Below, piece after piece: positions 9,374 through 59,180 of a stretch of DNA of 64,000 nt. Within the stretch, counting starts at the first letter, position 1, and the number at the start of each line of letters is the position of its first letter. The notes below the pieces were generated by a model. The model saw only the letters and a list, made by a program, of their open reading frames with translations, searched no databases and was not told the origin of the DNA. Made by a program: the position numbers and the translations under genes. The DNA is from Opisthorchis felineus (taxonomy: Eukaryota > Platyhelminthes > Trematoda > Opisthorchiida > Opisthorchiidae), in assembly GCA_004794785.1 (NCBI GenBank), contig SJOL01008491.1:39016-103015 (forward strand). The letters run 5' to 3'.

Positions 9374-9404
9374 GTAAGTGATGCGCTTTTTATTTGTATG
9401 CGTA

Positions 9405-34520: not shown

Positions 34521-34733
34521 AAACTACTCATAAGGTTGCTGAAAATTCTTCGACAGCCCACGACCGGATTCGCTCTTCTTTGGGATCATCAAATAGGCCC
34601 AGTTCCCGAGTTTCCGTCAACATTATGTTCGCTTTGAACCCAAATTGGACAGATTTCGACAAATACACTCATTTGCATATCAAGTTGATTTTGACGGGAG
34701 ACTTACCTGGAACCCAGCTGAATCTCTCGTTTA
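34521..34733 (-). repeat. Hammerhead-ribozyme repeat, copy A (degenerate ribozyme)
   Basis: Read on the minus strand the copy runs from the head (CAGCTGGGTTCCAGGTAAG in its partner arm) through GAGTGTATTTG to the ribozyme at about 34555-34603 and the tail CAGCAACCTTATGAGTAG. The ribozyme has TTGATGA in place of CTGATGA and GAAT in place of GAAA, so the core is broken. CCGGTC followed by GTGGGC is kept. Confidence 0.8.
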
Positions 34734-34809
34734 CGCTGCTTTTTATCTTTAAAAAAATACACCATAAACGAAAGATTCAGCTGGGTTCCAGGTAAGTCCC
34801 CCGTCAAAA
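34689..34809. repeat. Near-perfect inverted repeat, 45-bp arms, at the head of repeat copy A
   Basis: The arms 34689-34733 and 34765-34809 are reverse complements at 43 of 45 positions, separated by 31 bases. Both arms are the head end of the hammerhead repeat (TTTTGACGGGAGACTTACC, then the CTGGAACCCAGCTGAATC block). A second, partial copy is thus joined head to head, and the transcript would fold into a long stem. Confidence 0.92.
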
Positions 34810-37800
34810 CCGAATCGATATGCAATAAGGGGTTGATATTGTCACATTTAACAGGCCAAAAGTTGTTAGTTCGATTGGTCAGTTTGGGAAGATTGAGCTA
34901 GATGATCGTGTTGTGACTGCCGCGGCAGCACCAGAGGAATAAAATGAGGGGCTCAAACTAAACCGAAATCGAAAACGTTGAGTATTGTAGCCTTCAGTTG
35001 AAGAATCATCACCGAACATATTTAAAACGAAGGATCCGTTAGGTGTAGTAAAGCATTAAGGACTCGTATTCAACGCAATCAGTCAAGCTGAATGTCAATA
35101 GCTGTCGACATCCTGCGAAAGTAAGCAGAAGACTCTGATGGTGAAATTAGTGAACATCTTTTGTACGAATTTCAACAGCGGCATAACATCAATTCAAAAC
35201 ACGTAAAAGCACATCCGCAGAGTCCTGCGGCACAATATCCAGCTGTTGTGATTCCATCTTTGTCATGTGTCTGTGAACCAGCGGGTATAATAAATCTCGA
35301 TAAAAGTGTGGTGAGGAAGGGTTTTGTTTATCCTGCATAATGATACTGTACATACGCTTATTCGGCTCAAGTTTGACTTTCGTAAACTAGCCAAACTCGC
35401 TAGTTCTGCTACTGAGTTGAAATTTAACTTCTAGCCTACAGAGTTAAAATAATGTGTTTCTTGGGTCTAACACCCGAACAGTTTGCAACCTTTGGCACTT
35501 TTATAGTCTCATGATGTACGTCTTGCTGGATAACCAGTTAGACTTCGTGTAACTCTCGAGGGGAGGTGAAAACTCCAGATATGATGCCTACATGGAGATG
35601 CCGGTTAAAATACCGAGTAGTTTAATGTGTCATACTTATATGGCTTATAGGTTGACAATTCAGTCAAGCTGTGATATGCCTCCAGATGTAAAAGTTTCGA
35701 AAAACAAATTGCAAACAAGCTTTACAACTGGCTATCCTACACCATGTATCAAGTATTTTTCAGGAACACTAAGTGTGAGAACGGGTTATGTTTCTTCGAG
35801 AAGCCAATCCTCTCGAAGTGAACAACTTTTAACTGTACGGATATGTTCGTTTCATGGGGAGACCAATTCATTTGCCAAAAACGCACGTACATTTTTCCAT
35901 CATCATGCTCTAAGGTGGGCGAGCCGGATTACTACTTGGATGGATTATGTGCCAAGTTGTGTGTACCTGGAATTCGAATTCGTATCCATACCAGAGTGCT
36001 TACGCATTCACACAGCAGGGCTTGTATCGTACTGCAACATGCATCACTCATGTATTCTCGCTGAATATGCTTAGCACGTGAAGTTGTGCTTCACGGCCCA
36101 TAGTCGCCACACGCTTCTGAAACGTTCAGTTGGACAGATCGTTCAGCATATTTGGAGAAATCACACCCTATTATTAGATTTTGGCTATTCCTAACAAACC
36201 CTGTCGATTTCATCGATGACGAAGACGTTGGGACAAAAATAATGCGTATCTGTATAGACGTAATACATTCGACCAATTTTTGCGTTTTTATTAGTTAAGT
36301 GTTATCTTTCCCGGTGACTACCATCCTGAGAGGTGTTCCCCGGCCTACTACACACTTTCAAAGCATACATAACTACCACCCTGTGTCTGTTACTTTTTCC
36401 GCATTTCGGTAGGGTGCTATTACAGTCTTCTCTCCCCATCATGTTTATCAGTGCACAGAGTGATGTGTTCAATGCTCACGTATTAGGATTCTGTGATCCA
36501 GTTCCACTTCTGAATAGTGGTCGCCAAATCAGCAGCTCAGTTGGTTGATGTCTTGCAGAAGCGTAATGTTGGTATGCCCAAATGCAATCTGCGAATTACA
36601 GTTTGTTCTGGAGGAATTTTATATTAAACGTTACTTCACCCTTTTCGAACACCATCTGGTTGACCTTGATCACATCACAGGTTCAAGGAAGCATAATCTG
36701 GTGTCTTTGTGGTTCTAACCATCGGTTTACGGAGGAAACCTACGCCTGTGTCCAAATCAGTGAGAATAGAACAGTGACCGTAGATTTTGTGCACGTTTAA
36801 TCATACGTTAACGTCTCAGGACTAAGTTGGCGAGTGCTACTTGTGATCTACGCCATCAAAATGCACTATTATCCATACGCCAACAAAACTGGGCAAAAAC
36901 GAGTTGTGTATCGTCCGTAACAGCTGTAAACAATCGACTGGTCCGAACAACCGATTAACTGGGAATCTTGTTGAACTCCGATATAAACCCACCTTTTCAT
37001 TTTCCTTCTACGGGTAACTACCGATACCAACTTCAGTTGGTATAGAAATGTAATATTATTTTGTAACTCTGAGTCAAAATCCTCATCAAAAAGTTCACTA
37101 AGTTCGTCAGTATCCACTTGTTTTTTTCTTGGCACATATATGTGCACTTTCTCCGAGTATCCCGCGTTTGTTGTTTGCAGAACGCATCAACGTTTCACAC
37201 ATTTTCAGTCACATGACACACTAAAAATAGATTAAAGCGCCCGACTCATCACAGACCTCCCCTCTAATTTCGTTTCTTTGTCCTGTAAAGTAATTTTAGA
37301 AATTTCGGTTTAAAAAACTGCAACCAAAGGAGCCACATGCCAGCAACCAGAGTGTTCTTCCCATTACACCAACGAACAATCATAAATTGTGCACTGTAAG
37401 TCAGTACCAATAATTAGATTAAGAAATCATCTGAAAAATCCATTTCGTACCGTTTTCTACTGGTTCCGTGAGGAGACGTCCCACAGTTGTCCTACTGTGA
37501 GAGCGGCAATAGCACAACCAGCGATGACAGTAAGAAGGACGCCAGAAAGATATCAAAGAAAAGGTATCTGTTATTTGGATGCAAATGGGCAAAAGAAAGA
37601 TCTATACCTCTAAAGAGCTTACGCTTCGGAGAGGCGTAAAACTTCCACCAGTCTTATGGATGTCCCTTCTCGGGAGATGTTACCGTGTAAACAAACGGCG
37701 TTTAGATGCACCAAGTGTGACAGTCTCCTGATGTTTACGCGTCACAAATATGTTGAGTCATACCATTATGTGTCTAATCCTGGGTCAAGCATATTTAGTG

Positions 37801-38937
37801 CTTCATACGTAAAGGTGTTCTTTATGGTCAGGAGGCAACTAAAAGCATCTGTTGCAAGAGTATTTTCGTACACTAACTGAAATCGGTTTGCCAGAACATT
37901 TTGTCGGATTTAATGACGTACGTAGCACCGATCGATTTCGTCTGTTGTCTTTGGAGGATACGCAGGAAACAATAACTTAAATAAAACTATCTACGATACC
38001 CATATATTTTAACTATCCACATAACCGTGATGGTCAAACCATCCAAGTTAACTTCCGACGTGTTTTGAATTCGCTTGCGCACTCGCCAACGCACGCTTGT
38101 CCAGTAATTTAGATGTGCTTCGTCGAAACTCGCCTACCCCATTGGTGGATTGGAACTGGTTGTATCTTTCCTCTAACGTGACTGTCATTATGGTTTGGTG
38201 AAACTCTATCTCTCCTCACTTTTGCCTGTGGGATTTTTTTATCTGGTCGTTTATGTTGGAGTTGTTGGGTGAGACAAGCCAAATGGGGAAATGTAAACAT
38301 GCAAAACCTCCCTACATCACGCTGTTTTTCGTCAGTGTCTACGTGTCCCAAAATTGGGGTTTGAAATTCTCCTGCTGGTGACATGACTGAGATTCGGAAA
38401 TTCTCAGGCTGGTCTTGGGTCGCAACCTTCAAAATGATTTACCACGAAACGTTTCAAAAAATAAATTTTCGCAAAGTACACGACAAGTTGCGATCCTGCA
38501 TCCACATTCTTTTCATGTGAAATACCAATATAATGTTGAGTTTTTGGGAAAACATTCCAATAGAATCTCAACTTTTTGGGAGGTAAATATGACTACAGAT
38601 GTATGTTTTTATGCAATGTGGAGACAACAGATGCACAATTCAAATCAAGTCATTTAAGGTTGTTTGTCGTGTAGGGTACATTTTTGCCACGCGACTTAAA
38701 ACAGGTACCCAGTAATGATGATGACGTAAGCTAAACCATAAACAGAACACAAAAATGTGAGAAAGATGCCAAGTTGTTATGCAGGTTGTTGAGAGTGACT
38801 GAAAACCAAGCCAAGTGAGGGCTGACATAATGCGGAGTGTTGGTGGTAACATGTGTCCTTAATTCATATATCCAGAGGACGTGGCTTTGGTGTGTGTGGC
38901 TGATGAAAACGAAAAACGTTGGATATGATTTATTGAG

Positions 38938-39122
38938 TCGCTAAACCGTAGCGATCTTTCGGTGCGTAGATGCCATGCGAACCGTGGGAAGCATGAGGGC
39001 TGAGGGAATGTTTGGGTAGCCCATCCCAGACAGGGACAGTGGAGATGTCGGATTTGGGTTCGAATCACGAATCTTCCGGTTAGTAAGTTTGAGGCTCAAA
39101 CACTGAGCTATCTCAGGCTCAT
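38938..39122 (-). repeat. tRNA-derived SINE-like repeat with A and B boxes
   Basis: On the minus strand it starts GAGCCTGAGATAGCTCAGTG (A box), with GTGATTCGAACCC (B box) about 30 bases on, then ACTGTCCCTGTCTGGGATGG and the body. The head is well preserved. Confidence 0.8.
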
Positions 39123-39948
39123 TTCACTGAGTTAAAGTGGGACAATTATAAAAAGACATGCTTTTCGCAAAGGCAACCCAGACGTAACATAAGGTAGCGC
39201 TGTATTCAAAGACGTGTTTTAGCAAACAAAAAATGAGGATGGGACAAAGGGAACCAAAGGAGAAAAAACCTCTTCGGTTATTGAGAGCTCTAACGGAAAT
39301 TTATCTAGTTAAAACAATTTGTCAATTGAGATCTCGTACTGTAAGTGATGTCAATATTCGTGGGAAAACACCTTGTAAATGTTCCGCCCTTAGTTGGAAT
39401 ATTCCTTAGTGCGTCCCTTAGGCATCCCCAGGGTATTTCAGTCCGCAGACTTCGTAGCCAGTAGTTGATAGATAAACTGTTCGGCCACGAGCATATGATC
39501 AGCAAAGTGACTGACTCATATCCAACCAGTATACAGTTCCAGACATCCTTCAGCCATCATCATCTGATGGTCATCTGCTGGCTGGCTCCATGAAGCACTC
39601 TTTTTTGAAACAGAAACCTATTTCTCTAAATTTTCTTTATACATTTAGAAGGGTCGTTGGATTCCCCCACTTGAGGTAGTTCAAATACTTGCAACAATGT
39701 GTTTGCACGTCAGTGATAGCATTGTTGGCCGGGAGCATTCACTTCAAAGATAAATTCCGGTTTACTATGACGTTCATCTGTGTGGTTACATTCGAAAACC
39801 GTGAAGTTAGCCAACTTATCTTGGTACATTTAAGCAGTTACCACTCTGAGGTGTTTTTTAATACGTAAAAATTTGTCATATCTGCTAGGCGCGGAAAGAT
39901 TTTCTTTTACGACGAATATCAGAAGCTCGACAAATAGTTTCATTCGCA

Positions 39949-40095
39949 CACGAATTTGTTTTGACGGGAGACTCAGCTGAATCCGGATGATCCTTGAATA
40001 TTTCAAGTGCGGCGGCCTTGTGAAGAACAATCAGTTGAAGCGGACAAAATATTCAGCTGGAATCCAGTTGAGTCTTTTGTCAAGACCAAATTCGT
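39949..40095. repeat. Imperfect inverted repeat at the head of repeat copy B
   Basis: CACGAATTTGTTTTGACGGG with the following GACTCAGCTGAATCC block is mirrored after about 65 bases by the CAGCTGGAATCCAGTTGAGTC block with TTTTGTCAAGACC and AAATTCGTG. This is the same head-to-head arrangement as at 34.7 kb, but older. Confidence 0.75.
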
Positions 40096-40250
40096 GTGAA
40101 AATGAGGATATTTGTCGAAATCCGTCCATTTAGGTTTAAGTAGAACATAAAGTCGATGGAAACTCGGGGACAGCGCCTACCTGATGGAACCGAAGAAGGG
40201 CGAAGGAGCATTTCATCAACCTTACGAGTAATGTGCGACGTCTAGACAAC
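40046..40250 (+). repeat. Hammerhead-ribozyme repeat, copy B (degenerate ribozyme)
   Basis: Plus-strand copy. The ribozyme at about 40170-40212 has CTGATGG for CTGATGA and CGAAGG for CGAAAC, and the stem III and cleavage region is lost. The tail CATCAACCTTACGAGTA is retained. Confidence 0.75.
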
Positions 40251-40782
40251 AATATTAGAAGCTCATTAGCTAGCCCAAACGCATTGTTAGAACCCTTACT
40301 TTTCTAATAATTCTCGCCTCCCATAGTCAGCGATATTGGTTTTCTAGTCATCTATATACTTGGTTTAGCTTCTTCATAAGAGAATTCTAAAACCAGAATA
40401 ACTGACAACTTTTGCAGCATCAGTGTGACAGTCTCACATAACGTATGAATTAATTTCATTACAAGGAAACTACTGGTTCAGAAATCAACGACTACTGAAT
40501 GAAACTTGACACTCATTTGTTGCATCTTCGAAACCACATCTTTCACCTTCGCAGAGGCCGTCCGAAATATGTGAGTGATTGAAGTTGGAACCGTAAGCAA
40601 GCTGTGTTTCAAAGCATAAGTGACACGGGAAACACAAGATTACCTGGGCTATATCAAGTGAAGGAGCTATCGCGTTCTGATAAGCGGCAGGACTCATTAG
40701 GTTACACAAAGCAGACTGTCTCAAAACGCACACTCGCATGAATTTCAGTTACAAGAGTAAAGACAAATAACTATAGTGCTTG

Positions 40783-41025
40783 AAAATATCATAAGCGAGA
40801 GATTCAGCTGGGTTCCATGTGAGTCTCCCGCAAAACCAAAGTTGTTTGCAAATGAGTGTATTTCGCTACTTTCCTGCAATTTGAGTTCAACTAGAACATG
40901 AGGCTGACGGAACATCAGGGACTGTGCCTACCTGATGAGCCCCAGGAAGGGCGAAACCGGTCGTGAGCTGTCGAAGAGTTTTCAGCAACCTTATGAGTAG
41001 TGTGTTACGTCTATATAGTGTTTTG
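40783..41025 (+). repeat. Hammerhead-ribozyme repeat, copy C (intact catalytic core)
   Basis: Plus-strand copy from ATCATAAGCGAGAGATTCAG through CAGCTGGGTTCCATGTGAG and GAGTGTATTTCGCTA to the ribozyme and the tail CAGCAACCTTATGAGTAG. It is antisense to TPPP. The repeat has no open reading frame and looks non-autonomous. Confidence 0.88.
40924..40970 (+). ncRNA. Hammerhead ribozyme, minimal stem III type
   Basis: A self-cleaving RNA motif. C3-A9 is CTGATGA at 40932-40938. Stem II pairs 40939-40942 with 40949-40952 (GCCC with GGGC) around a CAGGAA loop. G12-A15.1 is GAAA at 40953-40956. Stem III is ACCGGT at 40956-40961, a three-pair stem with zero loop. H17 is C at 40962, with cleavage predicted after it. 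Stem I pairs the CCTAC before the core with GTGAG after the cut (C-G, A-U, U-G, one mismatch, C-G, then G-C). All core bases known to be required are present. The zero-loop stem III is as in schistosome Sm-alpha and Penelope-like-element hammerheads, which act best as dimers. Activity itself is not shown by sequence. Confidence 0.88.
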
Positions 41026-41403
41026 TAGATTTACTGTTACTTCATTCCTTGTCTCCCCTTTGAGTTTTGTCGGGAGTCGAACTGCTAAAAGATGAGGGTC
41101 GGTTGAACCTGAGAACAACTCGACTTACCATTGCGTACCAACCAGCATGAGCAGTCAGTCATTTAACTGAGCTTACGTGAGGCGGCAGTCTTATCTGTCA
41201 GTCAAGATGAAAGTCTTTTGAAGGCACTATCGCAGGAACTATTATTTCGTTAGCCGTAGTATTGCCATTAGCACTTTGATGATGGAAATACTTGCTCACG
41301 GTACTTTCTAACACGTCGAATCGAAAGTATGGTACGGCACTCTCCTCACAGAGCACATTATTTGAGTGAAAAACGCTCATCCAGGAAAAATATCAATGTC
41401 GCA

Positions 41404-41765
41404 AAAAACGAATTTTTTTGCAAATGAGTGTATTTCGCTAATTTCGTGCAATTTGGTTTCAAGTAGAGCATGAAGTTGACGGAAACTCGAGGACTGCGCC
41501 TACCTGATGATCCCCAGGAAGGAGCGAAACCGGTCGTGGACTGTCGAAAAATTTTCAGCAACCTTATGAGTAGTGCGTTACTTATATACATGTATCGCGA
41601 TATTTCGAATATCGTAGCAACTGAAACATGAGACGGCCTGATGCAGCACAGTCAGTTGCCTGGAAACATCACAAACGAGAGATCCAGCTGGGTTCCAGGT
41701 GAGCCTCTTGCAAAAAAAAAACAAATTTGTTTACAAATGGGTGTATTTCGCTAATGTCATAGAAT
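41404..41765 (+). repeat. Hammerhead-ribozyme repeat, copy D joined in tandem to a partial next unit
   Basis: Copy D runs to about 41690, where the head of a second unit (CAGCTGGGTTCCAGGTGAG) follows directly. The shared GTGTATTTCGCTAAT lies at 41428 and again at 41741, a period of 313 bases. The second unit ends before its ribozyme. The junction carries the linker GATATTTCGAATATCGTAGC, also seen in copy E. Confidence 0.87.
41497..41542 (+). ncRNA. Hammerhead ribozyme, copy D (core kept, stem II weakened)
   Basis: CTGATGA is at 41504-41510, GAAA at 41526-41529, zero-loop stem III ACCGGT at 41529-41534 and cleavage C at 41535. Stem II begins with U opposite C and has a bulged A, so it is less stable than in copy C. 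Stem I keeps C-G, A-U, U-G and C-G pairs next to the core. Possibly weakly active. Confidence 0.78.
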
Positions 41766-41867
41766 GTTTTTACTCGGCATATCTTGGCTGGCCAGAGTAA
41801 CTCACCGTGTTTCTCAAATACTGATTTTTACTTTAGACATGTAAAGTGTCATTTTTCTCGCCTGTCA

Positions 41868-41970: not shown

Positions 41971-43400
41971 TTGGTGCACTATTCTAATTTCCTTGTTCAT
42001 TTAGGATAAATCTTCTTATTAAATCGGTGTATCGTTTTTAGTTACTAAGAGTTAGAAGGCAGGAAATTTACTCATTCAGGTAAGCCAAGATGATAGCGTC
42101 CTAAAGACTAATACGCATGTGCACCAGGTCATGCAATAGCATTGCAAATCGGACATGCCTCTCGGGATGTTCTCAGCCCGCATTAGAAGAAACACTGAGT
42201 CAAAACAAAGATTACTCTTCGGCTTAGTCAATTTCAGAGTAATCACAACAGAACTTTATTAGGTATGAAAGGAAAATATCAGTTATCCACCAGAAGATGC
42301 TAACAGTTCCGCCTTAGTCAGAAACGGTGACTAAAGGACCCGGAATACTACCGACAAGTAAAAAGGGTATGCGACGCACTTTGCGCAGATAATCCTTGCG
42401 TCCCACATATTGGAGATACTCTGATGGGGGTATCCTGCTCAAGCGAGGAGTAGTTTGAGTTTTCCGACCAGAGCATTCTAAATACGCTCAGCTACAAACG
42501 TCAGTCACAATTATGTACACCTCCCATAGTCTGCTGTAGGTCACAGACTGCCCGCAGAAACTTTGGCTTTAAAATCACAGTCAACTTCACCTAGCTGGCC
42601 ATAGATTTACTGTAAGGGCAGAAGGAGCAGACGATAGTCAACGATTCGGTAGTTACACCCTGTTTGCTTCTAAAATTAGAAGACGCTTCAGCTCAATGGG
42701 GTGAGACTGAAAACTTTAGATTAAAAAGCTTATTGACCTAGAGGGAACGAAATAAAAAACGACAGTATATGAAAACACTAGATGAAATGTATTAACACCT
42801 GCACAGATTTATGCAGGTGCTTTAGGGCGGCCCTGTGCAGCAACAACCGATTGTGTAATAGAACCGGACGTGTGTGTGCGCTGTGTATACTTAGAACTGC
42901 TCCCTCCTATCTTCAGACTACATCGTCGATAAGGATAGTTAGCATTTATTTAAGTCAGTGTTTTGCTAAACATCTGAAATAAGATTTTGTCCCTCGAGGA
43001 AAACTGATGATAAGTGAAGACTTGCAATTTTCAATTGGACGAAGCAGCAATACCTAGGTGACTATTTCGGCTGAGCACTATTGGTTTTCGTCTTTATGTT
43101 GTGATGATTCGTATGTTGCAAAATCTTCAAGAGACTAGTGTTGACCTATGGTGAAAGCGGGCAGTTTCTGTGGGAAGATCCTGTCGTCAAGCTTCAACAA
43201 TAACGTTGCTAGCCAGCTGAACCATACAAAAATTTTGGGTCAATTGTTGTTACGCTTATCATTTGGAAGCGTATGAAGCTTCTATTTGTGCGCATGGACA
43301 CGGATTCGAACTTCAAGGGACGCTATTGCTAACGGCACCAGCCTTGCTAAGTTTTACGCATGATATTTCGTCAACAAGCAGGGTATATTACATAGATGCA

Positions 43401-43765
43401 ATACACTAGTCATAAGGTTGCTGAAAACTATTCGACAGCCCACCACCGGTTTCGCCTTTCTTGGGGCTCATCAGGTAGGCCCAGTCCCCGAGTTTCCGTC
43501 AGCCTTATGTTCTACTTGAACCCAAACGAAATTAGCGAAATACACTCATTTCCAAACGTATTTGGTTTTGCGAAAGACTCACCTGGAACCCAGCTGAATC
43601 TCTCGCTTATGATGTTTTTAAGCAACTGAATGTGTTGCACCTGGCCGCTTCATGTTTCATTTGGCACGATATTCGGGATATCGCGATACACGTATAGACG
43701 CAACAAACTACTCTTGAGGTTGCTGAAAACTTTTCGGCAGCCCATGCTTACGACCTTCTTTAGGT
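43401..43765 (-). repeat. Hammerhead-ribozyme repeat, copies E and F in tandem
   Basis: GGTTGCTGAAAAC, the complement of the tail, occurs at 43416 and again at 43718, giving a unit of 302 bases. Copy E is complete from tail to head. The second unit (F) breaks off inside its ribozyme near 43760. The linker between units carries a near-palindromic CGATATTCGGGATATCG. Confidence 0.87.
43436..43483 (-). ncRNA. Hammerhead ribozyme, copy E (cleavage base mutated)
   Basis: On the minus strand CTGATGA (43474-43468), a three-pair stem II, GAAA (43453-43450) and ACCGGT (43450-43445) are intact and stem I is well paired (CCTAC with GTGGG). Position 17, at 43444, is G instead of C, A or U. G17 is not cleaved in known hammerheads, so this copy is expected to be inactive. 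Confidence 0.82.
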
Positions 43766-45054
43766 CAACCTTCTGATATGTAACAGCCAATTTACTTTCC
43801 TACCTTGTATCTGAATCTTATTTTAAATGGCTTAAATTCGTCTTAGGACTGAAGCCTGAGAACAGCTAAATTAATTGACCAGCATTAAGCTATAAAGTAT
43901 GAAATCTCCGCCAAGATTCATCCAGTAAATAAAAAAGTATGTCCTGAAAAGTGAGTGCGTTCTTTCTTGCAAACTTAATAGGCCATGAAATCAAGCTTCC
44001 CTGACGCTTGATCAAGGTGGGAAAAAACTCATGAAGAAATCAAACAGGTCTTTCACACCTGTCGATCCAGAGCGCGTCGTAGTAATCACATTAAAGTACA
44101 GTTTTCCATCCCCTAGGTTTATCGACCACAGATAAGCCTGTTTTCGTTAATCCGTGCTTTGATACCGTACAAAACTGTCAACCTGAACCGTCTTGTAGAC
44201 CACAAACACTTCTATATGTTTGCAGTTGGGATTTTGCCCTGCAACTGAAGCCAGTCTGTGCTGAAAAACCGAGAAGCACTGTTCAGCTGTTTCTTCCTTA
44301 CTGGAATCATCCGAAAATCCAGAGTTTTTTTATTTGCTGTCTGTAGCACAGTCTAATACCATATCCGTTTGCGATTCGTACACGTTTCACCAAGTTTCTC
44401 GACTAAACACTCGGCTTACTTCGTCTACGTGAAATAGCTTGTTTACCTAAGCGTGACGAAAACGGTGTTTATCAGTTGGCAGTCACTGGTTGCTAAAGCT
44501 CTATAGTTAAGTTTTACAGTTCATCGAATCTGTTGTACGGTTTGGATCACCTGAATCCTATCCTATCCTCGGTAACTATGGGGAGCCATTCCGTAAAAGC
44601 TTTGATAAGTCTGACGGCTACATCCATAGGTTAAGTTGAACATAAACATTTAACAGAAAACTAGCAACCTGTATTGGGTAGTTACCTCAAATGTAATATT
44701 CCACTAACATGTCCAAATTATTTCTCCCATTGTCGTAAATGTTTGTTCTTGAATGAATCGAAATGAAAAGTCGGCTTGTAGAATTGATAATTTCAACAAT
44801 ATCCATGTTCGGAACACCCAATAAATAAATACGCTCCAAGTTCCCAAATTGTGTATGCTGGCTGAATTCTTTTGAAGAGCTACACAGAAAAGCCTCTGAA
44901 GGTGTGAAGACACGAAGGTATCATGACGGTGTCTAGCTATAAAATACTGTTTTGAAGGTACTGATTCGAAGACCTAGGCAGATTTACCTTATTCTTCACC
45001 AACTACAACCATTTGCGCACTAATTAAGTTTGAAAGCGAGACTCATCCTAATCC

Positions 45055-45095
45055 ATTTGACCATCATAAACAAGAGATTTAGCTGGATTAGACCG
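45055..45095 (+). repeat. Head fragment of hammerhead repeat
   Basis: CATCATAAACAAGAGATTTA followed by GCTGGATTAG matches the head of the family (CATCATAAGCGAGAGATTCAG then CTGGG). No ribozyme follows. Confidence 0.5.
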
Positions 45096-47004
45096 AGTAC
45101 CTTGTTCGGGGGCGCCGATCCATGGGCTGCCCCTACCTTCACCGAGCTTGGCACTTGGCTTATGGACCAACCGAGGAGGCATCATTTGGGGATAGTTGAG
45201 TGTACTAAGGGTGCAAGCCTCTCGGCTAGTTTGGTGAGCAGTTTCTGTACTTCATAAATTTTTCTAGCGAAGCTGCTTTACAAATTCTATTGATCTTAAC
45301 CTAATCTAACTCGGAAAGCGCTGCATCTGGAGAATGTGGCCGCTCTAGTTCGAGATGGGACCATATATGCAAACGACGTTTTTGGGTAAAGCCAGAATAA
45401 AAATCAACACAGCAGCCCCTGTAAGTTGTGCAACTTGGAAGTGCAGACAGTGGTGAATAAAAATGGCCAGAAACTTCGGGTCACTTTGTCTGAGAAACTT
45501 AAAGAAAGACCTAATACGGCAGACTTTTCTCCACTCTAGTCATACGAACACAGAAACACAGTAGAACACCTTAAAAGCTATTCTTTAATTTAGAACTAGC
45601 TTAAAACTCATTTGATCAAACCAGTCAGAAATCGGGCTACCAGCTGGTCTTTTTGGAGTGAGAAAGCTGTATAACAAAGACGGAAACAGTTTTTTGAGAT
45701 GTATAAAGAATGAGATTTCATGACTCTTCGCGGCTGTGTGGAAGGAAATTGGAAAAATCAGTGTTCATCACTGAGTATGGTCATATTCAGCAAACAGCGT
45801 TAAACAATACCTGAGATTTTTCAACTTCAATAATTCATCCATAAAATATTTCTGTGGGGTAGAGCATTCTTACTTTGGTGGTATTCTCGTTCTCATATAC
45901 AGGTATTCTCAAGCAGATTCTGAAAATTGATAAACAGCCTATATCCGGTTTATCCTGCTTACACCCTTTGTGCTACGTTCTCTGCTAAACAGCGTCAACG
46001 TGTATCAATTAGTTCCAGAAATTACGTGGTGCAGGATATTTAGAAATAAGTTTAAGACCAAAAAACTTCAAAGTTGTACAGTGAAGCCTAAAATTCCGTG
46101 GACTGGAGGTGAGACTCGGAAAGAAAGAAACAGGAAAGGAGTTTAATGCAGTCTTGAGTATTGCTTATATTCTAAGCCAAGACCATTTGACGGATTATAT
46201 TCTTGATGGAATTTCGAGGCAGTTTGTCTGCTATCATTCTGTTGGGACATACCACCATGTTGTCAAATTCCACGGATGCAGTCAAGCATTTTGTTTTAGC
46301 AGCCGCTGTAATCATACCATCGATACTGTTCTAAAACTGGTCCCGATCTGTTGCTTGAAATTTCACCAACTTATGGAAACTATTGTTGAACGCCCTGTAT
46401 ATAGAACGCCAATTTAACAAGGCCTTCCAAATATTCTAGCAATAGTTGTGCGAGGCATGACTTTTTGCCTGTTTGCTTTTTGCTTACAAATTACTTGGCA
46501 CACGACAGCAGGAGAAGACCTAAGGCAAACCTAGGTCCCCATAGCAAGACATAGCAATGTGACACATGCTTGCTTAAAGATAAGTGGAACAGTTTGGCAG
46601 CTACTCAGCGCACATTATGTAGACGCATTCGTTCGCCATCGACAGACTCATGAGTAAGCACGATTTACAGACTGGTATTTATTTTGTTTGTGAGTAATGC
46701 AGACGCATTTAAGACGTACACTTATTTCGGCTTTGTTCGTCATGTTAGTTACTGGGACAGTTTCAGTCTTATTTTTGCAAACCGGGACAAAGTTATATAT
46801 CGATCAGCAATGAAAATGTGATTAACTTTAGCCCAAAAGTGTAACCCAGGTAGACATCTGGGCGAGCCGCTAATCGATCAAAAATGCATTTTCTGAAGTG
46901 CTGGCTGTTAGACTTTCTACGAGCATCGCCTGCTTTTATGGTAAGACCGTCTGATTTTTCAACGGTAAACAGTGCGTTGATAGTCAGTATCTATTCACTA
47001 CGTG

Positions 47005-48876: not shown

Positions 48877-48982
48877 CTAGAATGATCACGCCTCAATCGT
48901 TTCCTGAAACTGAATTTTGAATCGAAATATCTTAAAACATGGTTGCACGCCATCATAGTCAATCTCATGATTTAAACGTACC

Positions 48983-49150
48983 ACCTTACTCATAAGGTTG
49001 CTGAAAAACCTCTGACAATCCATAACTGGTCTCCCCCTTTTTGGGGATCATCGGTTGGGCGAACCATCACAAACGGGAGATTCAGCTGAATTCAGTTGAG
49101 TCACCATTCAAAACCGAACTTCTGTGCAAATGACAGCATTTGTCCCAATC
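48983..49150. repeat. Hammerhead repeat copy G, rearranged (tail inverted against head)
   Basis: 48983-49055 is the minus-strand tail and ribozyme portion, with CCGATGA for CTGATGA and a lost GAAA. It is followed directly by a plus-strand head (CATCACAAACGGGAGATTCA then GCTGAATTCAGTTGAGTC). This is the third locus where the repeat changes orientation at its head. Confidence 0.65.
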
Positions 49151-50973
49151 CCATGAGTTCCTTCTTTTTTCCCTTATACCGGTTTAAGAAATGCCTTTCC
49201 GACTAAAGTCGAATCAGCTCACGTTAGACTTTAGCTGTTCCCGGTCGTCATGATGCATACGAAGGCAGCTGGCACCCATCAGTCTTACAGAAATTTCGGA
49301 AAATGTGTTATCCAGTGATACAACATGATGACAGCAGGTCCAGTCTTGGGTTGCATTGCGTTGCGTTGCTATCACCACAAGCTCTAGAATTAACCAACTG
49401 ATAGAAAATAATTGTCAAGCAGTTATGTGTATTGATTGTGTAAATCATTTTACTTCGCCCTGTAGATACCAACGGAACTGAGGAAAGCGGAACTTTTTCC
49501 GTTTTGAGTTAGTGTTCACAAGGAACTGGCATGCAACCGATTCCAACTTACTTGAATGGCGGTAGCAGACGGTGCGATACCAGAATAGATGTTTTTGTCC
49601 AGAATGGTTGGACAAAGGTGATAATGCAAGCAGTTAAATCCAAATGTACCCAACAGGAGCACATCGTGTGTGGCTAGTTCACGGTGTAATAATACCAAGT
49701 TCTCGTAAAATACGTTGTAAATTATCTGAACTAACAAGACAGCAGTCCTTGCTGGATTCTGAAGAAAGAAAGGTTATTTGTGTTCAAATGAGCAAAAATA
49801 AGCCTTTTAGCTTACATACTTTCTACTGTAAATCATAGCTATCAACCGTAAGTTCCAAATGAAACAAAGCAGGTTGCCGATCTGTTTTAAAACAAAACAT
49901 ACGTGTGGTTTGGACTTCTCAGTGCTGAGAAATGCAGCGTCTATGTTTCAGAATAATATGAATCGCATGGACCCCTTAGCTATGCGCAGCTGCGTATCAG
50001 GTAGTTTCAGAACCAGATGGAAATGTCTGATGATGAGGAGACCTCAAAATTCTACCATCAGTTTCTTTAGTATTTTGGCCAACGGCTTGTTGCATTCAAT
50101 GAAGTAACTACTGGTCGGCTAAATGAAGAGTCGTCACAATAGATCTGCCATCAGTTGCAGATATCGTGAAGTGTGAACATTCGAATCATGGTCAATAAGT
50201 CGCTTAATAAAATTGCTTCATAAAACTTCTCCCTAATTGCTCCCTCATAATTTGATATCTGTATAAGACAAATTGAAATAAGGACGAAATATTGCACACT
50301 TCAACTGAATAAGAAGTTTATGGAATATCTGCGTGGGCACTGGACTTATTGCATTCCATTAGAATCGATATTTGGCAAAATCGTCAAGTTACTGCCCCAT
50401 ACATTTAGAAGCACGCACACCATGTCTGATTTATAGCTTGATTAGTCCGAGCCGATATAATTCAACTTCACCGCTATTATTCGTTTATCGACATCCTGAT
50501 TCGCTAATTAACGGCATGCGCTACGTTTGATATTTACCCAACGGATCGCCGTGTACTACGCATACAGTTATAAACGACCGCAGTAGCCGTATTAATTTTA
50601 ACTTTATTGGTCATTCATTACCTACTGTCTGTTAAGACGTCCCGTCACCAACAAAGGAATCTTGGAATGTCTCTGCAGAAGTCTAAATTTGACAAAATAT
50701 CATGAAAGGTTGTGCTGGATTCAGCGCCAAAAGGGAACACGAACTAGGTCAGCTTTTACTTGAAGATGCCTACCTACTCATCCTAAGAATTTTATCCAAC
50801 CGTCTTTTAAAATTTTCCGCAAGGTCATAACACAAAAGGGCGTGAGGCGTTTTCAACGAAAGGATTACATTGTGTTCAAATTTCCACATCTCTTGCTGTG
50901 TACTCCATCAGTTCGTGTGAGTAAAAATTCATCGAAATTCCTGGTGATCGTACGGTGTTAGGGTATTGCTTAC

Positions 50974-51174: not shown

Positions 51175-53199
51175 CTAGGAGGTCGAGTGCTCAATTTGGA
51201 AGCGGACGGGAGCGCATGGTATCCGTGCGGTGTGGATTCAGCACAGCCAACTGGTGTTCAGTCGGTTAGCTGTCTGACGGATTAACCCACCAATCATAGT
51301 GCGGCATGTATGTCTGTCCCTAAGTGTGATCGAGCAGGCACGGCCGATCCAGCAAATTTGATCGATTGGACAATTTCTACCACTGGAACTGCAGCGCGGT
51401 GTGGTTCACCTGTCCGCGCACGCCCGATTCTGCCCCGTCTGGAAAATCACGCCGGTAGATGAACGGGAAAACACCAAAAGCGAATAGAGATGGGTGGAGC
51501 CGAGCTACAGTGCCGATATTAACTCCACCAATCCAAACAGTTTATTCTGCCTTAGCTGATCTTTCTGTAAAAAGAGGTCGCTTAAACAGCCGTAAAAATG
51601 AGCTAGACGATCGATCAATACGCCTGAAACAACGCTAAATCATTCTCTTCCAATATACAGGGAAAATGATGAACTTCGTTCATGTGAGGTCTCCACAAAG
51701 CAGACTAGAAGCTTGCAGCGAAGTACCCTTTATTACAAAATAGGCGTTCCAACGTAGGCTAAGATAATGTCATGGTCTTGAATGGCAGCACAGGCTCAAG
51801 GATGAGACGGACGAAGCAATAGTTCCACGATGAGATTAGGTCCACCAGCGATGCTTCAATAGTATGTTGGTGAGCGCACCATTAGAATGAGCTTTTGTTT
51901 GTTTGGTTAGCGCGAGTTCTAGGAGCGGACATTATCTTAGCCATTATTATCTTAGCTGTTTACGTCTGACCGAGGTGTCGTCCTCCGTGATTATAGGCCG
52001 CACAATTTTCTCGTTGTCTGTCCCCAAGCGAGCCGAAATTTGCAGCAAAATAATTCAAATCGTATCTGACTACAGGCCCCCAATTAGGCACTACTTTTCA
52101 GCTCTATCGTGTATAATATGAAAAGTGCTAATGGTTTTCTGGTTGTTTTGCCCACATTCAACTTCAACCTTCAAGACATCAATCAAGCAGGCTCTGTCTA
52201 CTGAATTTACTGTTAACAGCGATTAGGTACACACACAATTCATACGTGCATGCTGGAAAGTACTCAACACCCATAAGACAACTTCATTGATCTAAGCGAT
52301 GGCTGCATTTGGGCCGTATTTGACTTGTGCACTACGCCACGTCATGCTTGCAGTGTTCCCGTTGTTGCTCGTCAGTCATTGACAAGCTGTGATGCAGAAA
52401 TGGACAACACCTTAGTGCTTTTGAGTCGGTTGTCATTGACAAATAGAGAAGTCACATACGTCTGCAGCGATGCTGGAGTGAGCACCGGATGCACTCCAGC
52501 GAAAGCTGCTTGATCAGTTTCCTGTCTAACAACCCTGATTTCGTTTCCACTCAGACCCAAGGATTACAATAAACTCTGTAGAGCAGTGCCAAACGGAAGT
52601 CGTTGAGAGCGGTAATGAATATGTTTCGTGCACATTATCGCCCATTCGCATTTGATTTCTGGGCATGCCCAACAAGCACTCCGAGAACCTCCACGTTTGA
52701 AACACACGGAAATTGGCAGGGTCCTAGCTGAATAATAGATGCACTGAATGGAAGAAAATGATACGCAGAGCTGATAAAATTCGAGATTTGACCGGCAAGT
52801 GGGTCTTTGTTAGCTACCTGCACAGTACAGGAACAGAAGAGAGAAAGCACGGAAGCTGAAGTAAGAAAAGAAGACTTTTGGTGTCCAATGTCATCAATTG
52901 GTTTCACTACATTGCACTTCGGTCGGAGAGCAAGGGACATTTTTGATGGTTTGCATTTGTGTTGTTTTGTGGACACCTATTAGAAGTGCTCGTTTTTGGT
53001 ATGGTTTTCCTCAATAGATTTTTTTTAGCAGGGACTGGTCCCTTTAAAACCATAAATTGAGTGCACCGAATGTCAAATAAGCAGCTCATACTGTACAGCT
53101 GGATGACCTATGATACGTACAACACACGCGGTTTGATGTCTGTGAGCCTATGAATCTGATGAAATCAGAAGGAATAGGGTTAACTAGCAGAGGCCCGTT

Positions 53200-53914
53200 G
53201 TGACCAATCAGCTGGCCCAAGCTGGCAATCTAGGGGGTCCTGCTTGACTGATTCACCTATCCACGATTGTCTCACTCAATATTCACGTGCATACCGGGTG
53301 TAGTGTGGCGGAGCGACATCATATTGAAACCAAGTACCACTGGTTAGATTATACTCCTCCAGATGCAGAACTACCTGGTGTTGCAACAGATTCTTTTAGG
53401 ATGAGACACTTCACGTTAACCTAAAAGAAAAACATTCCGAAATTTATTATACCAAGAATGTACGCCCAAACCACCAGCCTAGCAAGTTGTTGAATCGATG
53501 CGGGGTGTATCTAGCTCAGTACCAACTTTTTACAGAATTCCCCATTTGCGTAGAAAACTGCCTCATCGCCAAGCGGTATAGAAGATATCTCTGAAGCCTA
53601 AGAATCGATCACATAAGGTCACTCGTTTATCCAACCCATCCCGATGCAACTGCTGGACCATGAGACCTCAACACCTTCCCTATATGCAGTGTACACCTCG
53701 AAATGATGTTTTTCTCATCAATTCTTCGTGTGCTCCAATCGGAATTTCTGTCCAGTTCGCGGAGAATTTCATATGCAGAACAATCCTCGGTGGTAGCACG
53801 TGGACGGCCCATCCTTTTTGCGCCGTCTGAGCTACCAGTGCGTTGGTATTTTACCACAAGTTCCCAAACGTATCTACCATGGAACATAGGCCTACAGTAA
53901 TTGAACTGAATCAA
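53200..53914 (-). pseudogene. Decayed Tc1/mariner-superfamily (IS630-type) transposase
   Basis: Minus-strand translation gives the ordered landmarks of this family across frameshifts and stops. An N-terminal helix-turn-helix region ends in KYQRTGSSDGAKRMGRPRAT (the Gly-Arg-Pro-Arg signature). It is followed by ISRCTLHIGKVLRSHGPA (second helix-turn-helix), GDEAVFYANGE with the first catalytic Asp near 53.54 kb, a VVWAYILGI strand, and FQYDVAPPHYTRYAREYL containing the second Asp near 53.31 kb (usual form Gln-Gln-Asp-Gly-Ala-Pro-Pro-His). The final Ser-Pro-Asp-Leu segment is only dimly visible near 53.22 kb. At least three in-frame stops and several shifts make it inactive. Terminal inverted repeats were not found. 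Confidence 0.8.
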
Positions 53915-56900
53915 CCAGCAATCTCATAAGCATTGTAACTGCAATCATCCTACATCAGCACGATCTACAATTGCGGATCCAATAGCAAAACAATCGCTTT
54001 ATAGTTGACAGTGGACCCTGGGGTAAGGACTACTTCCATTTCCACTGACGTATGAGGTGTGAGCTACGTTACCGCATTACTTTGTTTGGAGGCACTCGCA
54101 GACACACCGACCGTGCCAATTGTGTCTTGTCATGCGTAAGATCAGCACAGTGCGTGAGACCATCTAGCGCTGTCCAGCTGTGCAGCTATCTAAATGTCCA
54201 GAGAGCGCTTGCTGTCGCTCTACCGAATTTCAGTAGACCTCGCCACGGTGGGCTTATCGCAGTTGGCTGAAGTCGCTCTCAGACTCGTGAGAATGTGAGC
54301 ACAATACCGCGTCTTAACAATTGCACTGAGCACATCACATCTTATCTTTTGATTTTCATGTTATGCACAAACGAGCACAGTGCAGCGTTTTCTCTGGTTT
54401 GATCAAAGCCTTTCGGACCGAAAGTGGATAAGCTCCATACTGGGCTGGTAACGTGGTTGTTGTGCTTGCTCCAAGTTTCGTCAGTTTCTACTACTTGTTT
54501 CCTACTTCTTCTTTCAGTTCCCTTTCGAGTAACTGACCCATTCTCAGGTGATTAGGAATTTCATCTCTTTGTATCGGAAAACAACGGATGTTTCCCTAGA
54601 AGGTTGAAGATTCCTGAAGGCGTCATTTTTACTAAATACACAGCACGGTATCGCACATTGGGCGCATTGTGCACTAATATTATCTGAGAGTGGTTGCCGT
54701 TAACTTTGCTCCATCTGATAACCTTCGCTGAGCAAAGGTCGAGTTGGAAGATTGCCCTTAAGTGTCGGTGGAATTTTGGCTTTTTACTGTAAGTAAAGAG
54801 TTGAGCTAAAATTTCATCATCCCCACTTAGCAACTGTGAAAATTTTGTGGGTTTTCTAGCGGATAGATAGATCTATTCCTAACTAGGTGAGAGGCCTAGT
54901 AGGTTTAGCCATGCACCCTGGCGGACAGCCCCAGACTCCAAGCCAGCAGTACATTGGCTATAGACAAGTGCCCTAAGGGTGATTGGTCTATTCGTATGGA
55001 ATGGATGTCTCGATACAAGCAAGTTGAAAAAGAGTGTTACAAGCGCTGAGAGTGTATGATAACTTTGGGCATAGAAACTCAGAAAATGCATTCGTTGGTT
55101 CGGGTATGCAACGTCTGACCTCAGTAAGGTGGACGAAACAAGATCAGTTTGAAATCCGGAATCACACGTACAACATAACGTCTAACCTGTCAGGAACTGA
55201 CCAGCGATACCCTCGTTAGGAATGACTTTTCAATTAACGTCGGGTAAAAACTACCCTGTAACTCTTCATCCAAAGTGAACCTTAGATGAAATCGAGAAAA
55301 GACAACAATAAAGGATGTCAGCCTATTACAAGAAAGAGCGTTTTGACTTGTCCCTACAGTGCACCCCTGTGAGGGTTCAAATACCGAGCGGACCGCTGTA
55401 ACTAAGCGCTTATCGGGATACGTGATATTTCAAAGATCACCGTGTTATGCTTGAATTCCTTTCATAACCTCACATTGACGGACACTGAGTGCAAACACGA
55501 GTACTCAGTTTTGTACCGTTTGCGAGCATTCGTGGTTCTGCTGAAACGTTGTCCAAACTTCTCTTTGCTTCAAATTTACAAATCTGGTAATTCACCGTCG
55601 ACAAAAGCAAAAGTCGAGCATGGTAGATGCATAGACCAACACTTGGCCAGATACACTATTTCTGGCGCTGTTACAACCACTGTTCTCACGAGACAATCGA
55701 ACTACGGCCTTGGCAATCAAGCAACTGCATTTGCATCTTAATGAGCTGTAAAACGCTTATTCTCCTAGCACTCAGTGTTCCGGAATTACCAATCAGCTTG
55801 CAAAAATGTTCTTTTAGTCTTTTTCAGAAGGGACTTTTACCAGCCCTTCCATATCGCTAACTGCAATCAAAGGGCATGAGTAAGATGAGTATTACCATAG
55901 GGTATTTAAAGAGAGGAAGGATCAGTTGTCCTTTTGACGCGTTGATTTTTGCATATTGAGGATTAATCCGCGAGTGAACCTTTTCGATTAGTTGAAAACA
56001 TTTTCCCCTGAGGACTATCACGTGTTGATACGTCACTTGTTAGAGCGAATGGTGTGTGAATCAAAGGTTGTTTAATCATTGTTGACTTCGTATATTCAGA
56101 TATTTCCAATTGCGGTGTTCCCGAACAACATATGGTCCTTACAAAACCATGATTTTTTGGAAATTTGGGCTCGCTGGTGCAAGGGTAAAGACCGCCCTGC
56201 TCAAGTTTTGGAGTGAATTGCTCTTGGTTAGTAGTAGTAACCAATTTACCAAATTACCGGGTTCATTGGTGTATTCATTTGCTATTTAGTTTTGCTGCAC
56301 CACTGCTCTACTCCATTTCATGAGAAACACGATTGACGATCAATCAAATTGTTTCGTAAATTGCAGTATTGCTCACTTAGAAAATAAGCCTAAAATAAAG
56401 ATGTGGCAACCTTTGTTTTTAAACAGTTTTGAGTTTTACAACGGTTTTACAATCACTGATAATTAGCAGCTGAGAATATTGTCAATATTCAGCAGAAAAT
56501 ACGGTGTAATCCAAAATTACTAATGCATTACTTCAATTCTGACGAACCACTAATTGGCAGATTCTGTTCTCAAAGTATGGTTTTCGCTTGCAGGACCTGT
56601 CTTCCCATTAGCAATCCCTCCTACCTGCTGTCGTTTTTCGGCGCCTTTTCGTTGTGAAGCAGGAGCTATAACTGACGGGACTTGAAGTGTGTGTAGGCAA
56701 CCTTCCGACCGCTAAAGCCAGTCTTGCCATGAGGTGCAGTCTCTCCAGGGAATAAAGACTTTCGTGGGCTAGCCAGCACAAAAATTATACTGTTGACTCA
56801 TCACAATTATACCAGATGATTCAATAAGCAATGAGCCGTAAACTGTCGAAAACTCATCCTATGGATGAGTATAATTCAGTTTGCTTAAATGAAGTGAGGG

Positions 56901-59059
56901 TGGTAGGATAAAGCCCCAGTTGTTCATCATTCGTTTGATATGTGTCCCACCTGAATGTCTCCTTTTCAGTCACCGGAGGATTTTCGCAAAATGGAATAAT
57001 CAATCCGTACTTCTATCCACTGAACGTGATTCGTTTCTGGGCAGGTTGCAGTGAGTAAACTTACTTGTTATCACACTGAACCACACGATAGCTTTCTGGT
57101 TGTCAAACTGTTCTACCACGGTAATCCCACTAACTTAGTAATTAGGCCAGAGGGATAATTTTGACGTGGCGCTTATTGTGTCTTTAGGAGATCATTTGTT
57201 TCTTTTGTTAGTCTGAAGGAACAGCTATCTACTGAGGACGTTAGTTTGAAGTGACGACCTATTGACTAATTTTTTACTGCGTCGTCACCGTAGGTAAGGA
57301 AATTGTTCTTTGCGTGGTTTCGTTTCAGGGTGTACTTCTGCCGTCCCGGGTGAAGTCCTTCAGGGACTGACTGTATAAATGTAAAATCCTGTTGGTTTTG
57401 ATTATGCCCACTGAGTAACTTCCGGTTAAAGGAAGTACAACGCTTGGCCTTTTAAGAACAACTATGTGCTTTCTGAGGTAATGGAAAGAACAATTAAGGA
57501 CACTGGTTTCAGGACTTGTCTTGTGAGTATCGCACACATCTGTCCTCAGAAAAAGAAGCTTGGTCGGAAAAAGAATGCAAGGCAGTCATTACCGATCTTC
57601 ATGTTACTATTGTTGTCGTGAATTTCTGATCCTTCACCAAGCCACTATCTGCTGTTTGGTCTTCTCCGATTATGGCGTCGCAGCTAGAGTTCCTGCCTGA
57701 AGTGTCGACACTTTCCGCGCAAAAGTAGCGAGCTATTTTAAACCCTACACCCCTTATTTTTTATACTCATACCAGCATTCAGCAGGCGTTGTTCTGCCCC
57801 GCAGTCGAATTCCAGATCACACAGAATTACAATGTTAAATTGAACCTAATGATGGGATCCCGGTGACTCAGCAACACAAGGGAATTCAGTCGAAATGAGG
57901 TAGAACAAGGAGAATGCATTATCGACATGCCTACCAAACGTCTGGTTAGTAGTTAGATTTGCCGAACTCAGGGCTTGATCAGACATTCGTCAGTAAATTT
58001 GATTTGTTTAATGCAGTCGTTCAAATGACAGACTAACAATGACAGATTACTAAGATGCATTAAGCAAGTCCATTAGTTTATCGAAACTAGCTGCACAGCT
58101 CCAGAAATTGTCAAACAATTTGCATCGAATTGAGTAGGTCGCCTTTGGTGAAGTCCTGGAGTAACGGAATGGTAACTAGCGTATTCGCAGTGCAATGATT
58201 GTTCAAGACGACCTATAAAATTTCAGCACTAAAAATACTGATAATGTAAACCGCAACTGAAGATGCTGGAGTGAATGGACAATAAACCAGAATTTGTCCT
58301 ATATTTGTACAATACTTTGAAGACGGCAGAATAGTTGACGGGACAAACGGTCTCCAGATGTTTCTGATGCTGGTCCTACCAACACCAACATGATAGACAT
58401 TCACATACGCACAGCGTCCGCACAGACGACACGCGGAATTTCACAAACACTCCCAAAAGGTCAAGCTCAGCGTCCCGTTTGCAAACGACGGATCGATCGT
58501 CCATAAGTAGCTTTTTGTACTAAATAGACAATTTCAGAATGCTTGCTTCCCCCTTAAATATTTTCATCCCATAGATGCAAAGAGTTAGTCGGTGTCACTA
58601 GGCACGTTTCTTTATCGAGAAACTTAACAAAAAGCATTAACTCATGCTCTTACATTTTTCACATCTGATAGTGCTACCTTGTTTTTTTGTGTGACTGTAT
58701 CGACATGCATGGTTCAATAAGGAGAGGCCCGTTAATGAGTTTAGTAGAACAGAAGGGATTACTGGATGCCTCTTGTTTTATCTATTGCCTGTGTAGTATC
58801 CTGCTTCCAAACGATAATCCGGATGGGCCATTCGCCCTGCGTGGTGTACATGGCTATTGTAGTTTTTTGAGCGAATCAATAAGCGCAATGGTCGCCCAAA
58901 ATTATAAACGTGATTGATAAATGCATATACATGCTGGTTTTAAAGCGGTTCCTCTAATTTAAGCACGCAGAGGCTCCAGTAGCTGACCTGTAGGCTGAGC
59001 ACTGTGGATTTGAGTTCCAACAAAGTCATCAACAGATGGAGTTTTTGGAAGTGGACGTA

Positions 59060-59180
59060 AAAAACTACTCATGAATGTGCTTAAAGCTTTTTGACTGTCC
59101 ACGATCGCTTTTGCACTTTTGAGGGCTCATCAGATAGGCGCAGCCCGTGAGCTTCCGTCGCCCTCATGTTCTACTTGAAC
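59060..59180 (-). repeat. Hammerhead-ribozyme repeat, copy H (degenerate, 5' truncated)
   Basis: On the minus strand GCGCCTATCTGATGAGCCC is followed by a degraded stem II, AAAA in place of GAAA, and GATCGTGGAC. The tail side is diverged. It lies outside TPPP, showing the family is dispersed. Confidence 0.7.

What the first reader, a model, noticed from the sequence alone, without database searches (positions are those of the whole stretch)
34521..59180. A hammerhead-ribozyme repeat family dispersed through a fluke genome
At least eight copies or fragments (34.5, 40.05, 40.8, 41.4, 43.4, 45.06, 49.0 and 59.1 kb) share a unit of about 300 bases whose only conserved functional-looking part is a hammerhead: CTGATGA, stem II, GAAA, ACCGGT, then C. 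Seen directly: the core, and compensatory-looking pairing in stems I and II. Established: Schistosoma Sm-alpha satellites and Penelope-like elements carry hammerheads with similarly tiny stem III. Inferred: this is a non-autonomous retroelement or satellite of that kind in a non-schistosome trematode, possibly undescribed as a family.
Basis: partly seen in the sequence, partly recalled or inferred. Interest (0 to 1): 0.88.

Follow-up and report, generated by a model that had tools for sequence, protein, structure and literature searches.

The report
Gene-less hammerhead retroelement in fluke genome
Scattered through a liver-fluke-like genome are at least two thousand copies of a short, gene-less mobile element that carries a self-cutting RNA motif, and the way its copies are inserted suggests it borrows the copying machinery of a known class of jumping genes called Penelope elements.

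Summary
The repeat is real: six clear hammerhead-bearing copies in the window plus decayed ones; only 40932-40962 keeps an intact core, stem II and cleavage base. The host is, by protein identity, an opisthorchiid fluke. Its 630-Mb genome holds 2,327 exact copies of a 31-nt intact hammerhead (reversed control 0).

The unit is about 307 nt, has no gene, and occurs singly, in head-to-tail tandems, or with a head-to-head inverted arm. In 24 of 30 head-to-head inserts the outer ends lie at two recurrent unit positions; about a third of inserts (21 of 63) have 9-15-bp end duplications, mostly exact. Three head-to-head copies of resident Penelope-like elements (PLEs) have 10-14-bp repeats at their ends too.

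Best reading: a gene-less, retrozyme-like element mobilized in trans by PLEs. It shares no pLTR sequence with the PLEs compared. The hammerhead core is more conserved than its surroundings, but insert 5' ends do not sit at the cut, so cleaved linear RNA is not the usual template. Hammerheads in retrozymes and PLEs are known; the insertion anatomy linking them is the new part. Activity, expression and circular RNA are untested.

The parts
40779..41013 (+). Copy B: single 235-nt insert with the only fully intact hammerhead of the window
   Evidence: nhmmer 1e-83, in the profile; ends fixed by 7-bp TATAGTG repeat, chance P 0.054
40932..40962 (+). Hammerhead core of B: CTGATGA, 4-bp stem II, GAAA, CCGGT, C17 (predicted cut site)
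41398..41766 (+). Copy C: more than one unit head to tail (hammerhead 41504-41535, linker, next unit's 5' part); stem II has a 1-nt insertion; no end duplication found
43389..43764 (-). Copy E: about 1.2 units head to tail; hammerhead 43474-43444 with G at position 17; no end duplication found
34519..34825 (-). Copy A: full arm on - strand joined head to head to an inverted 5' arm (+ strand, about 34757-34825); decayed hammerhead
   Evidence: 9-bp exact duplication TAAGGGGTT at 34510-34518 and 34826-34834, P 0.003
39929..40250 (+). Copy H: head-to-head insert; hammerhead core removed by a deletion
   Evidence: 13 of 14 bp duplication at 39915-39928 and 40251-40264, P 0.0003
48971..49145 (-). 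Copy G: hammerhead half on - strand, inverted 5' arm on + strand
   Evidence: 10 of 11 bp duplication at 48960-48970 and 49146-49156, P 0.016
44995..45097 (.). Fold-back of 5' parts only, no hammerhead; weak profile match
   Evidence: nhmmer 0.014 and 0.034; 9 of 10 bp duplication at 44985-44994 and 45098-45107, P 0.05
59054..59180 (-). Copy F: 5'-truncated copy, decayed hammerhead; no duplication found
8640..8873 (-). Old copy with linker, decayed hammerhead at 8782-8838; no duplication found
   Evidence: nhmmer 8e-11; model R1 E 0.0014
8002..8108 (+). Old hammerhead fragment (8040-8093)
   Evidence: nhmmer 2e-7; model R1 E 1e-6

Best explanation
A non-autonomous retroelement of about 307 nt with a minimal type I hammerhead, like a metazoan retrozyme, copied and inserted in trans by PLE protein (telomerase-like RT plus GIY-YIG endonuclease). 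Inferred steps: tandem or circular unit RNA is bound by PLE protein; the endonuclease makes staggered cuts in both target strands; each strand primes RT at an internal site on the RNA, one at unit position about 290-309 (roughly 50 nt past the hammerhead cut) and the other at about 150-166; both cDNAs run towards the RNA 5' end and are joined head to head, leaving a duplication of roughly 9-15 bp. Shown by sequence: unit, tandem period, head-to-head joints, two recurrent outer ends, duplications, the same style in three resident PLE copies, core conservation. Not shown: transcription, RNA cleavage, circular RNA, PLE protein acting on this RNA.
For: Abundance: 1,143 + 1,184 exact 31-nt hammerheads, reversed control 0; 6,221 first-look candidates for copy B, 40 scored. 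Set 1, 43 inserts in loci around the 40 scored hits to B: 22 head-to-head, of which 18 have one outer end at 150-170 and the other at 296-313 of a 313-nt consensus; 20 of 21 one-direction inserts end at the second site. Set 2, places taken in contig order from the exact-hammerhead list: 6 of 8 head-to-head inserts use both sites (145-172; 285-307 or up to 12 of a 307-nt reference copy). Duplications with score 9 or more: 14 of 43 (about 1.7% in the random pairs, which include repeats) and 7 of 20 (0.47% in its flank-only control). Resident PLEs: the three head-to-head PLE copies examined (L056, L088, L090) have exact 12-, 14- and 10-bp repeats near their ends, P 0.0005, 0.0005, 0.0025. PLE copies with open frames of 800 aa or more exist. 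Hammerhead core columns: 2.4% mismatches against 6.0% nearby, block permutation P 0.0026, 0 of 104 slid positions as conserved. 40 of 58 hammerheads in 39 loci chosen by similarity to B have intact core and H17. Literature: adjacent inverted pLTR, 8-10-bp duplications and a tail in rotifer PLEs (PMC3846280, passages); both target strands cut and extended, RT start internal and past the hammerhead in an Anolis PLE (PMC11167929, main-text section read).
Against: The PLE pLTRs compared (L072, L088) share no sequence with the unit and no parent PLE was found; of 30 PLE loci four contain the unit, none as the PLE's own pLTR. In set 2, 4 of 12 one-direction inserts end at neither site and 2 of 8 head-to-head inserts do not fit; 3 of the 12 end at the first site. 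42 of 63 inserts have no strong duplication. A first look at the PLE ends with fixed bounds gave only 5- and 4-base matches in L090 and L056; the repeats were found after reading the flanks and widening the windows. No covariation among young copies. Set 1 was chosen by similarity to B. Units in tandem arrays count several times in the core-conservation test, so its P is too small.
Confidence: 0.75

Rival explanations
1. Solo pLTRs and pLTR tandems left by a PLE that itself carries this hammerhead (now lost or unsampled), rather than an element mobilized in trans.
For: In the Anolis PLE the hammerhead lies at the ORF start (PMC11167929). Here too an ATG lies in the core and opens a short frame beginning MSPR in copy B, and the resident PLE frame holds MMSPR at the same place, with other codons. 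Only a small part of the PLEs was looked at.
Against: Among 60 fetched loci (115 kb) PLE-like protein matches occur in three (L045, L047, L048), none directly continuing the unit. Tandems keep a short linker instead of an ORF. The short frame ends at a stop, and its substitutions fall most often on codon position 2, unlike coding sequence.
Confidence: 0.2
2. Classical retrozyme cycle: self-cleaved linear monomers, or circles made from them, are the templates, so the hammerhead defines the copied RNA. (Not exclusive of PLE machinery.)
For: 307-nt tandem unit with type I hammerhead, as in metazoan retrozymes (PMC7229834, passages). Core constrained. Inserts longer than one unit need a tandem or circular template.
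Against: 5' ends do not pile up at the cut: 2 of 75 within 250-254 and 0 of 28. This speaks against linear cleaved monomers, not against circles.
Confidence: 0.35
3. Ordinary satellite DNA spread by unequal exchange and fragmentation.
For: Tandem arrays with a period of about 307 nt (L048; C14 array).
Against: Dispersed copies with exact duplications and recurrent ends.
Confidence: 0.03
4. SINE moved by a LINE.
For: Short, gene-less, dispersed, with duplications.
Against: No poly-A or simple 3' repeat seen at the 3' ends of nine window copies; a head-to-head inverted arm is a described PLE trait.
Confidence: 0.05

Closest known systems
Metazoan non-LTR retrozymes (Cervera and de la Pena 2020, PMC7229834, passages)
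   Same: Gene-less tandem units of about 300 nt with a type I hammerhead; duplications, when present, longer than 4 bp; the axolotl ones have helix III of one pair capped by a palindromic tetraloop
   Different: Head-to-head inverted arms with two recurrent outer ends are not mentioned in the passages seen; circular RNA unknown here
Penelope-like elements and their pLTRs (PMC3846280, passages; PMC11167929, section read; Cervera and de la Pena 2014, title only)
   Same: Minimal hammerhead, palindrome near the 5' end, head-to-head inverted arm, duplications, 3' end past the hammerhead
   Different: No RT-endonuclease ORF; the two outer ends about 140-150 nt apart instead of a 30-40-bp tail; no sequence shared with the two resident PLE pLTRs compared
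Newt satellite hammerheads (PMC7229834 and PMC6155905, passages)
   Same: Very weak helix III, working best as dimers; here the dimer is only expected
   Different: Unrelated host; sequence not compared
Schistosome Sm-alpha family
   Same: Fluke repeat with a type I hammerhead, called a non-autonomous retrotransposon in PMC6155905
   Different: Sequence not compared (none at hand); a structured stem III there is recalled, not tested

Membership tests
Metazoan retrozyme | Tandem units of about 170-400 nt carrying a type I hammerhead | tested here: met
   About 307-nt units: L048, L026 unit, C14 array
Metazoan retrozyme | No protein gene | tested here: met
   Only a 21-codon frame; no RT match in the 64 window ORFs scanned
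Metazoan retrozyme | GC under 50% | tested here: met
   46.6% in one reference unit
Metazoan retrozyme | Canonical type I hammerhead with loop-loop contacts | tested here: inconclusive
   Stem III is A-CCGG-U, weak as in axolotl retrozymes; loop-loop contacts not testable
Metazoan retrozyme | Expressed as circular RNA | not testable with these tools
   No RNA data
Penelope-like element | ORF with RT and GIY-YIG endonuclease | tested here: not met
   The 307-nt unit leaves no room for one; no PLE ORF continues it in the 60 loci checked
Penelope-like element | Minimal type I hammerhead | tested here: met
Penelope-like element | Head-to-head inverted arm, with target-site duplication | tested here: met
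   22 of 43 and 8 of 20 inserts head-to-head; duplications in 11 of those 22 and 4 of those 8
Penelope-like element | 3' end internal, past the hammerhead cut | tested here: met
   Main end about 49-56 nt past the cut
Sm-alpha | Sequence homology to Sm-alpha | not tested

The most novel reading that the evidence does not exclude
The unit is a PLE-parasitizing RNA with two RT start sites: the two protomers of a PLE dimer each start on one site of the RNA, one per target strand, so each head-to-head insert is a record of paired, two-strand target-primed reverse transcription, and the conserved hammerhead serves binding or template choice rather than end formation.
Probability: 0.3. Interest if true: 0.75.

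Novelty: new variant of a known kind. Interest (0 to 1): 0.5.

Why it matters
Which autonomous element moves animal retrozymes was left open in 2020, with LINEs or PLEs considered and PLEs called a strong candidate (PMC7229834, passage). Over two thousand copies with an intact hammerhead, many with readable ends, beside PLEs with long open frames, make that question testable in one genome. The two recurrent outer ends also bear on how PLEs insert, where self-priming (PMC3846280) and extension of both target strands (PMC11167929) have been put forward.

Tried and rejected
Hammerhead cut as the 5' end of inserts: looked for and not found (2 of 75; 0 of 28). Mini-ORF as a coding gene: the frame stays open in 66 of 87 copies, and in 63 of 75 without indels against 52.8 expected (P 0.003), but the ATG is part of the core and substitutions by codon position (54, 109, 86) are not coding-like; in six window copies a neutral simulation kept all frames in 0.05% of runs, without clear codon-position bias. 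Shared motif between the two outer ends: not significant (shuffle P 0.06; 344 of 18,369 unit window pairs as good), dropped. Parent PLE: an old insert about 350 bp upstream of a truncated PLE in L055 is taken as chance; in L076, L080 and L087 unit and PLE are apart, in L077 they abut at their outer ends. Transcription start near unit 60-79: 27 of 75 insert 5' ends in set 1 plus window, only 5 of 28 in set 2, left open. Monomer folds are no more stable than shuffles (z -1.05 to +1.15). Viral and prokaryote contig scans found nothing. Paper searches pairing hammerhead with Opisthorchis or Clonorchis returned one unrelated paper each, seen as listings; two searches were seen as listings only; subscription papers were not searchable. 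nhmmer failed on input format and ran.
Full report
Observation. The window copies were aligned and searched with a profile (built from copies A, B, C and E) and with a covariance model built from six of them. The model's other matches, not used in building it, are 8040-8093 (1e-6), 8782-8838 (0.0014), 18291-18317 (0.0023) and a poor 43732-43771 (2.3). Rfam does not name the motif at its curated threshold; HH9 is the nearest, and younger genome copies score better (L009, L026: 5e-6) but still under the gathering score.

Structure. The hammerhead sits on a long imperfect hairpin (ACATAAGG ... CCTTATG) that extends stem I. In copy E the unconstrained fold contains that hairpin and stem II. In a common genome unit the hammerhead-compatible fold lies 2.6 kcal/mol above the minimum (-37.3 against -39.9). 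Copy B's own minimum is different (-33.1 against -27.7). Over seven window copies 6 of 31 pairs show changes on both sides; for this measure 7 of 500 shuffles do as well, and 14 of 500 for the share of cells paired; the structure was drawn on copy E, which favours it. Among 46 distinct young hammerheads there is no covariation signal. Stem III is one A-U pair around CCGG, and ACCGGU is self-complementary. Axolotl hammerheads with such a helix III cleave poorly alone and well as dimers (PMC7229834, passages).

Host. One window ORF (458 aa) matched three proteins, from Clonorchis (85, 84%) and Opisthorchis viverrini (80%).

Insertion anatomy in the window. Of nine inserts tested, A, H and G have outer repeats of 9/9, 13/14 and 10/11 bp (P 0.003, 0.0003, 0.016); B and the 45-kb fold-back are borderline (P about 0.05); F, E, C and the 8.6-kb copy show none. 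The four head-to-head inserts (A, G, H, 45 kb) are all among those with repeats.

Genome. The window lies in a 630-Mb assembly of 1,848 contigs. Loci around the 40 scored hits to B were fetched. Without L013, the edge group and the L048 array, 43 inserts remain, including extra ones in the flanks: 22 head-to-head, 21 one-direction. Eighteen of 22 head-to-head inserts pair one end at 150-170 with one at 296-313 of the 313-nt consensus; one has both at the second site, none both at the first, three fit neither pattern. L012, L018, L022 and L041 have 13-bp exact repeats, L032 14, L038 15, L015 and L039 12. Because these loci were chosen by similarity to B, a second set of 20 places was taken in contig order from the exact-hammerhead list, leaving out one tandem array. 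It gave 20 inserts in 19 loci: 8 head-to-head (6 use both sites, with wider bounds on a 307-nt reference), 12 one-direction (5 end at 285-307, 3 at 145-172, 4 elsewhere), and repeats of score 9 or more in 7 of 20, among them 14, 13, 12, 12, 11 and 9 bp exact. The 100 listed hammerheads include an 11-member array at 307-nt steps on C14 and pairs 293, 304 or 307 nt apart.

Candidate machinery. A GIY-YIG search scored 150 of 553 candidates and found six places over the cut-off; three of these loci carry PLE RT or endonuclease fragments. An RT fragment then gave 150 scored matches of 2,873 candidates, some with long open frames, and two loci with tandem PLEs at a period of about 2,780 nt. In L072 a hammerhead-like core holds the ATG of the PLE frame, as described for the Anolis PLE (PMC11167929). 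Three head-to-head PLE copies have exact end repeats of 12, 14 and 10 bp; with fixed bounds L056 and L090 had shown only 4 and 5 bases, so these were found after reading the flanks. The pLTRs of L072 and L088 do not resemble the unit. Four of 30 PLE loci contain the unit; in L076, L080 and L087 it lies apart from the PLE, and in L077 the PLE's outer end (2957) and the unit's outer end (2960) abut.

Role of the hammerhead. Core columns vary 2.4% against 6.0% nearby, a sign of past constraint on master copies. The test uses the B-chosen loci and the window, and counts array units separately. Intactness (40 of 58) is inflated by choosing loci similar to B. The cut site is not an end of inserts (2 of 75, 0 of 28), and several arms run through it, so template RNA is uncut or re-ligated. 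Constraint without end use is the open puzzle; protein-assisted cleavage reported for the Anolis PLE offers one lead.

Novelty. Type I hammerheads in PLEs, in retrozymes and in schistosome repeats are known. I found no open paper on an opisthorchiid hammerhead family (listings) and none holding PLE, head-to-head and target-primed reverse transcription together, within the limits of an open-access library. The element is therefore filed as a new variant: retrozyme-like in unit and ribozyme, PLE-like in insertion.

Noticed in passing
window 18275-18343 (+); L060:67-134: A second hammerhead type: HH9 E 0.008 in the window (C3 changed to U) and 2e-8 in L060, with near-identical stem II; in L060 stem III is a palindromic ACTCGAGT. 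The genome search for it did not complete.
   Followed up: partly
window 11791-11883 (-): Fragment matching residues 19-49 of the resident PLE frame at 81%, probably an old PLE pLTR remnant.
   Followed up: no
window 34705-34793: Rfam microRNA models mir-1305 and mir-944 hit the head-to-head fold-back of copy A below their thresholds; read as a hairpin artefact.
   Followed up: partly
L090:506-4740: Nearly perfect (99.3%) 4.2-kb palindrome made of two head-to-head PLE copies.
   Followed up: partly
L077:2957-2960: Outer end of a PLE copy and outer end of a unit insert abut within two bases: a nested insertion, or a composite made in one event.
   Followed up: partly
window 9062-16152: Exons of a putative SLC38A10-type amino acid transporter (Aa_trans match and ORF 14779-16152).
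   Followed up: no
G000 C68, C76, C90: Some tandem hammerhead pairs are 293 nt apart instead of 307, which suggests a second unit size class.
   Followed up: no
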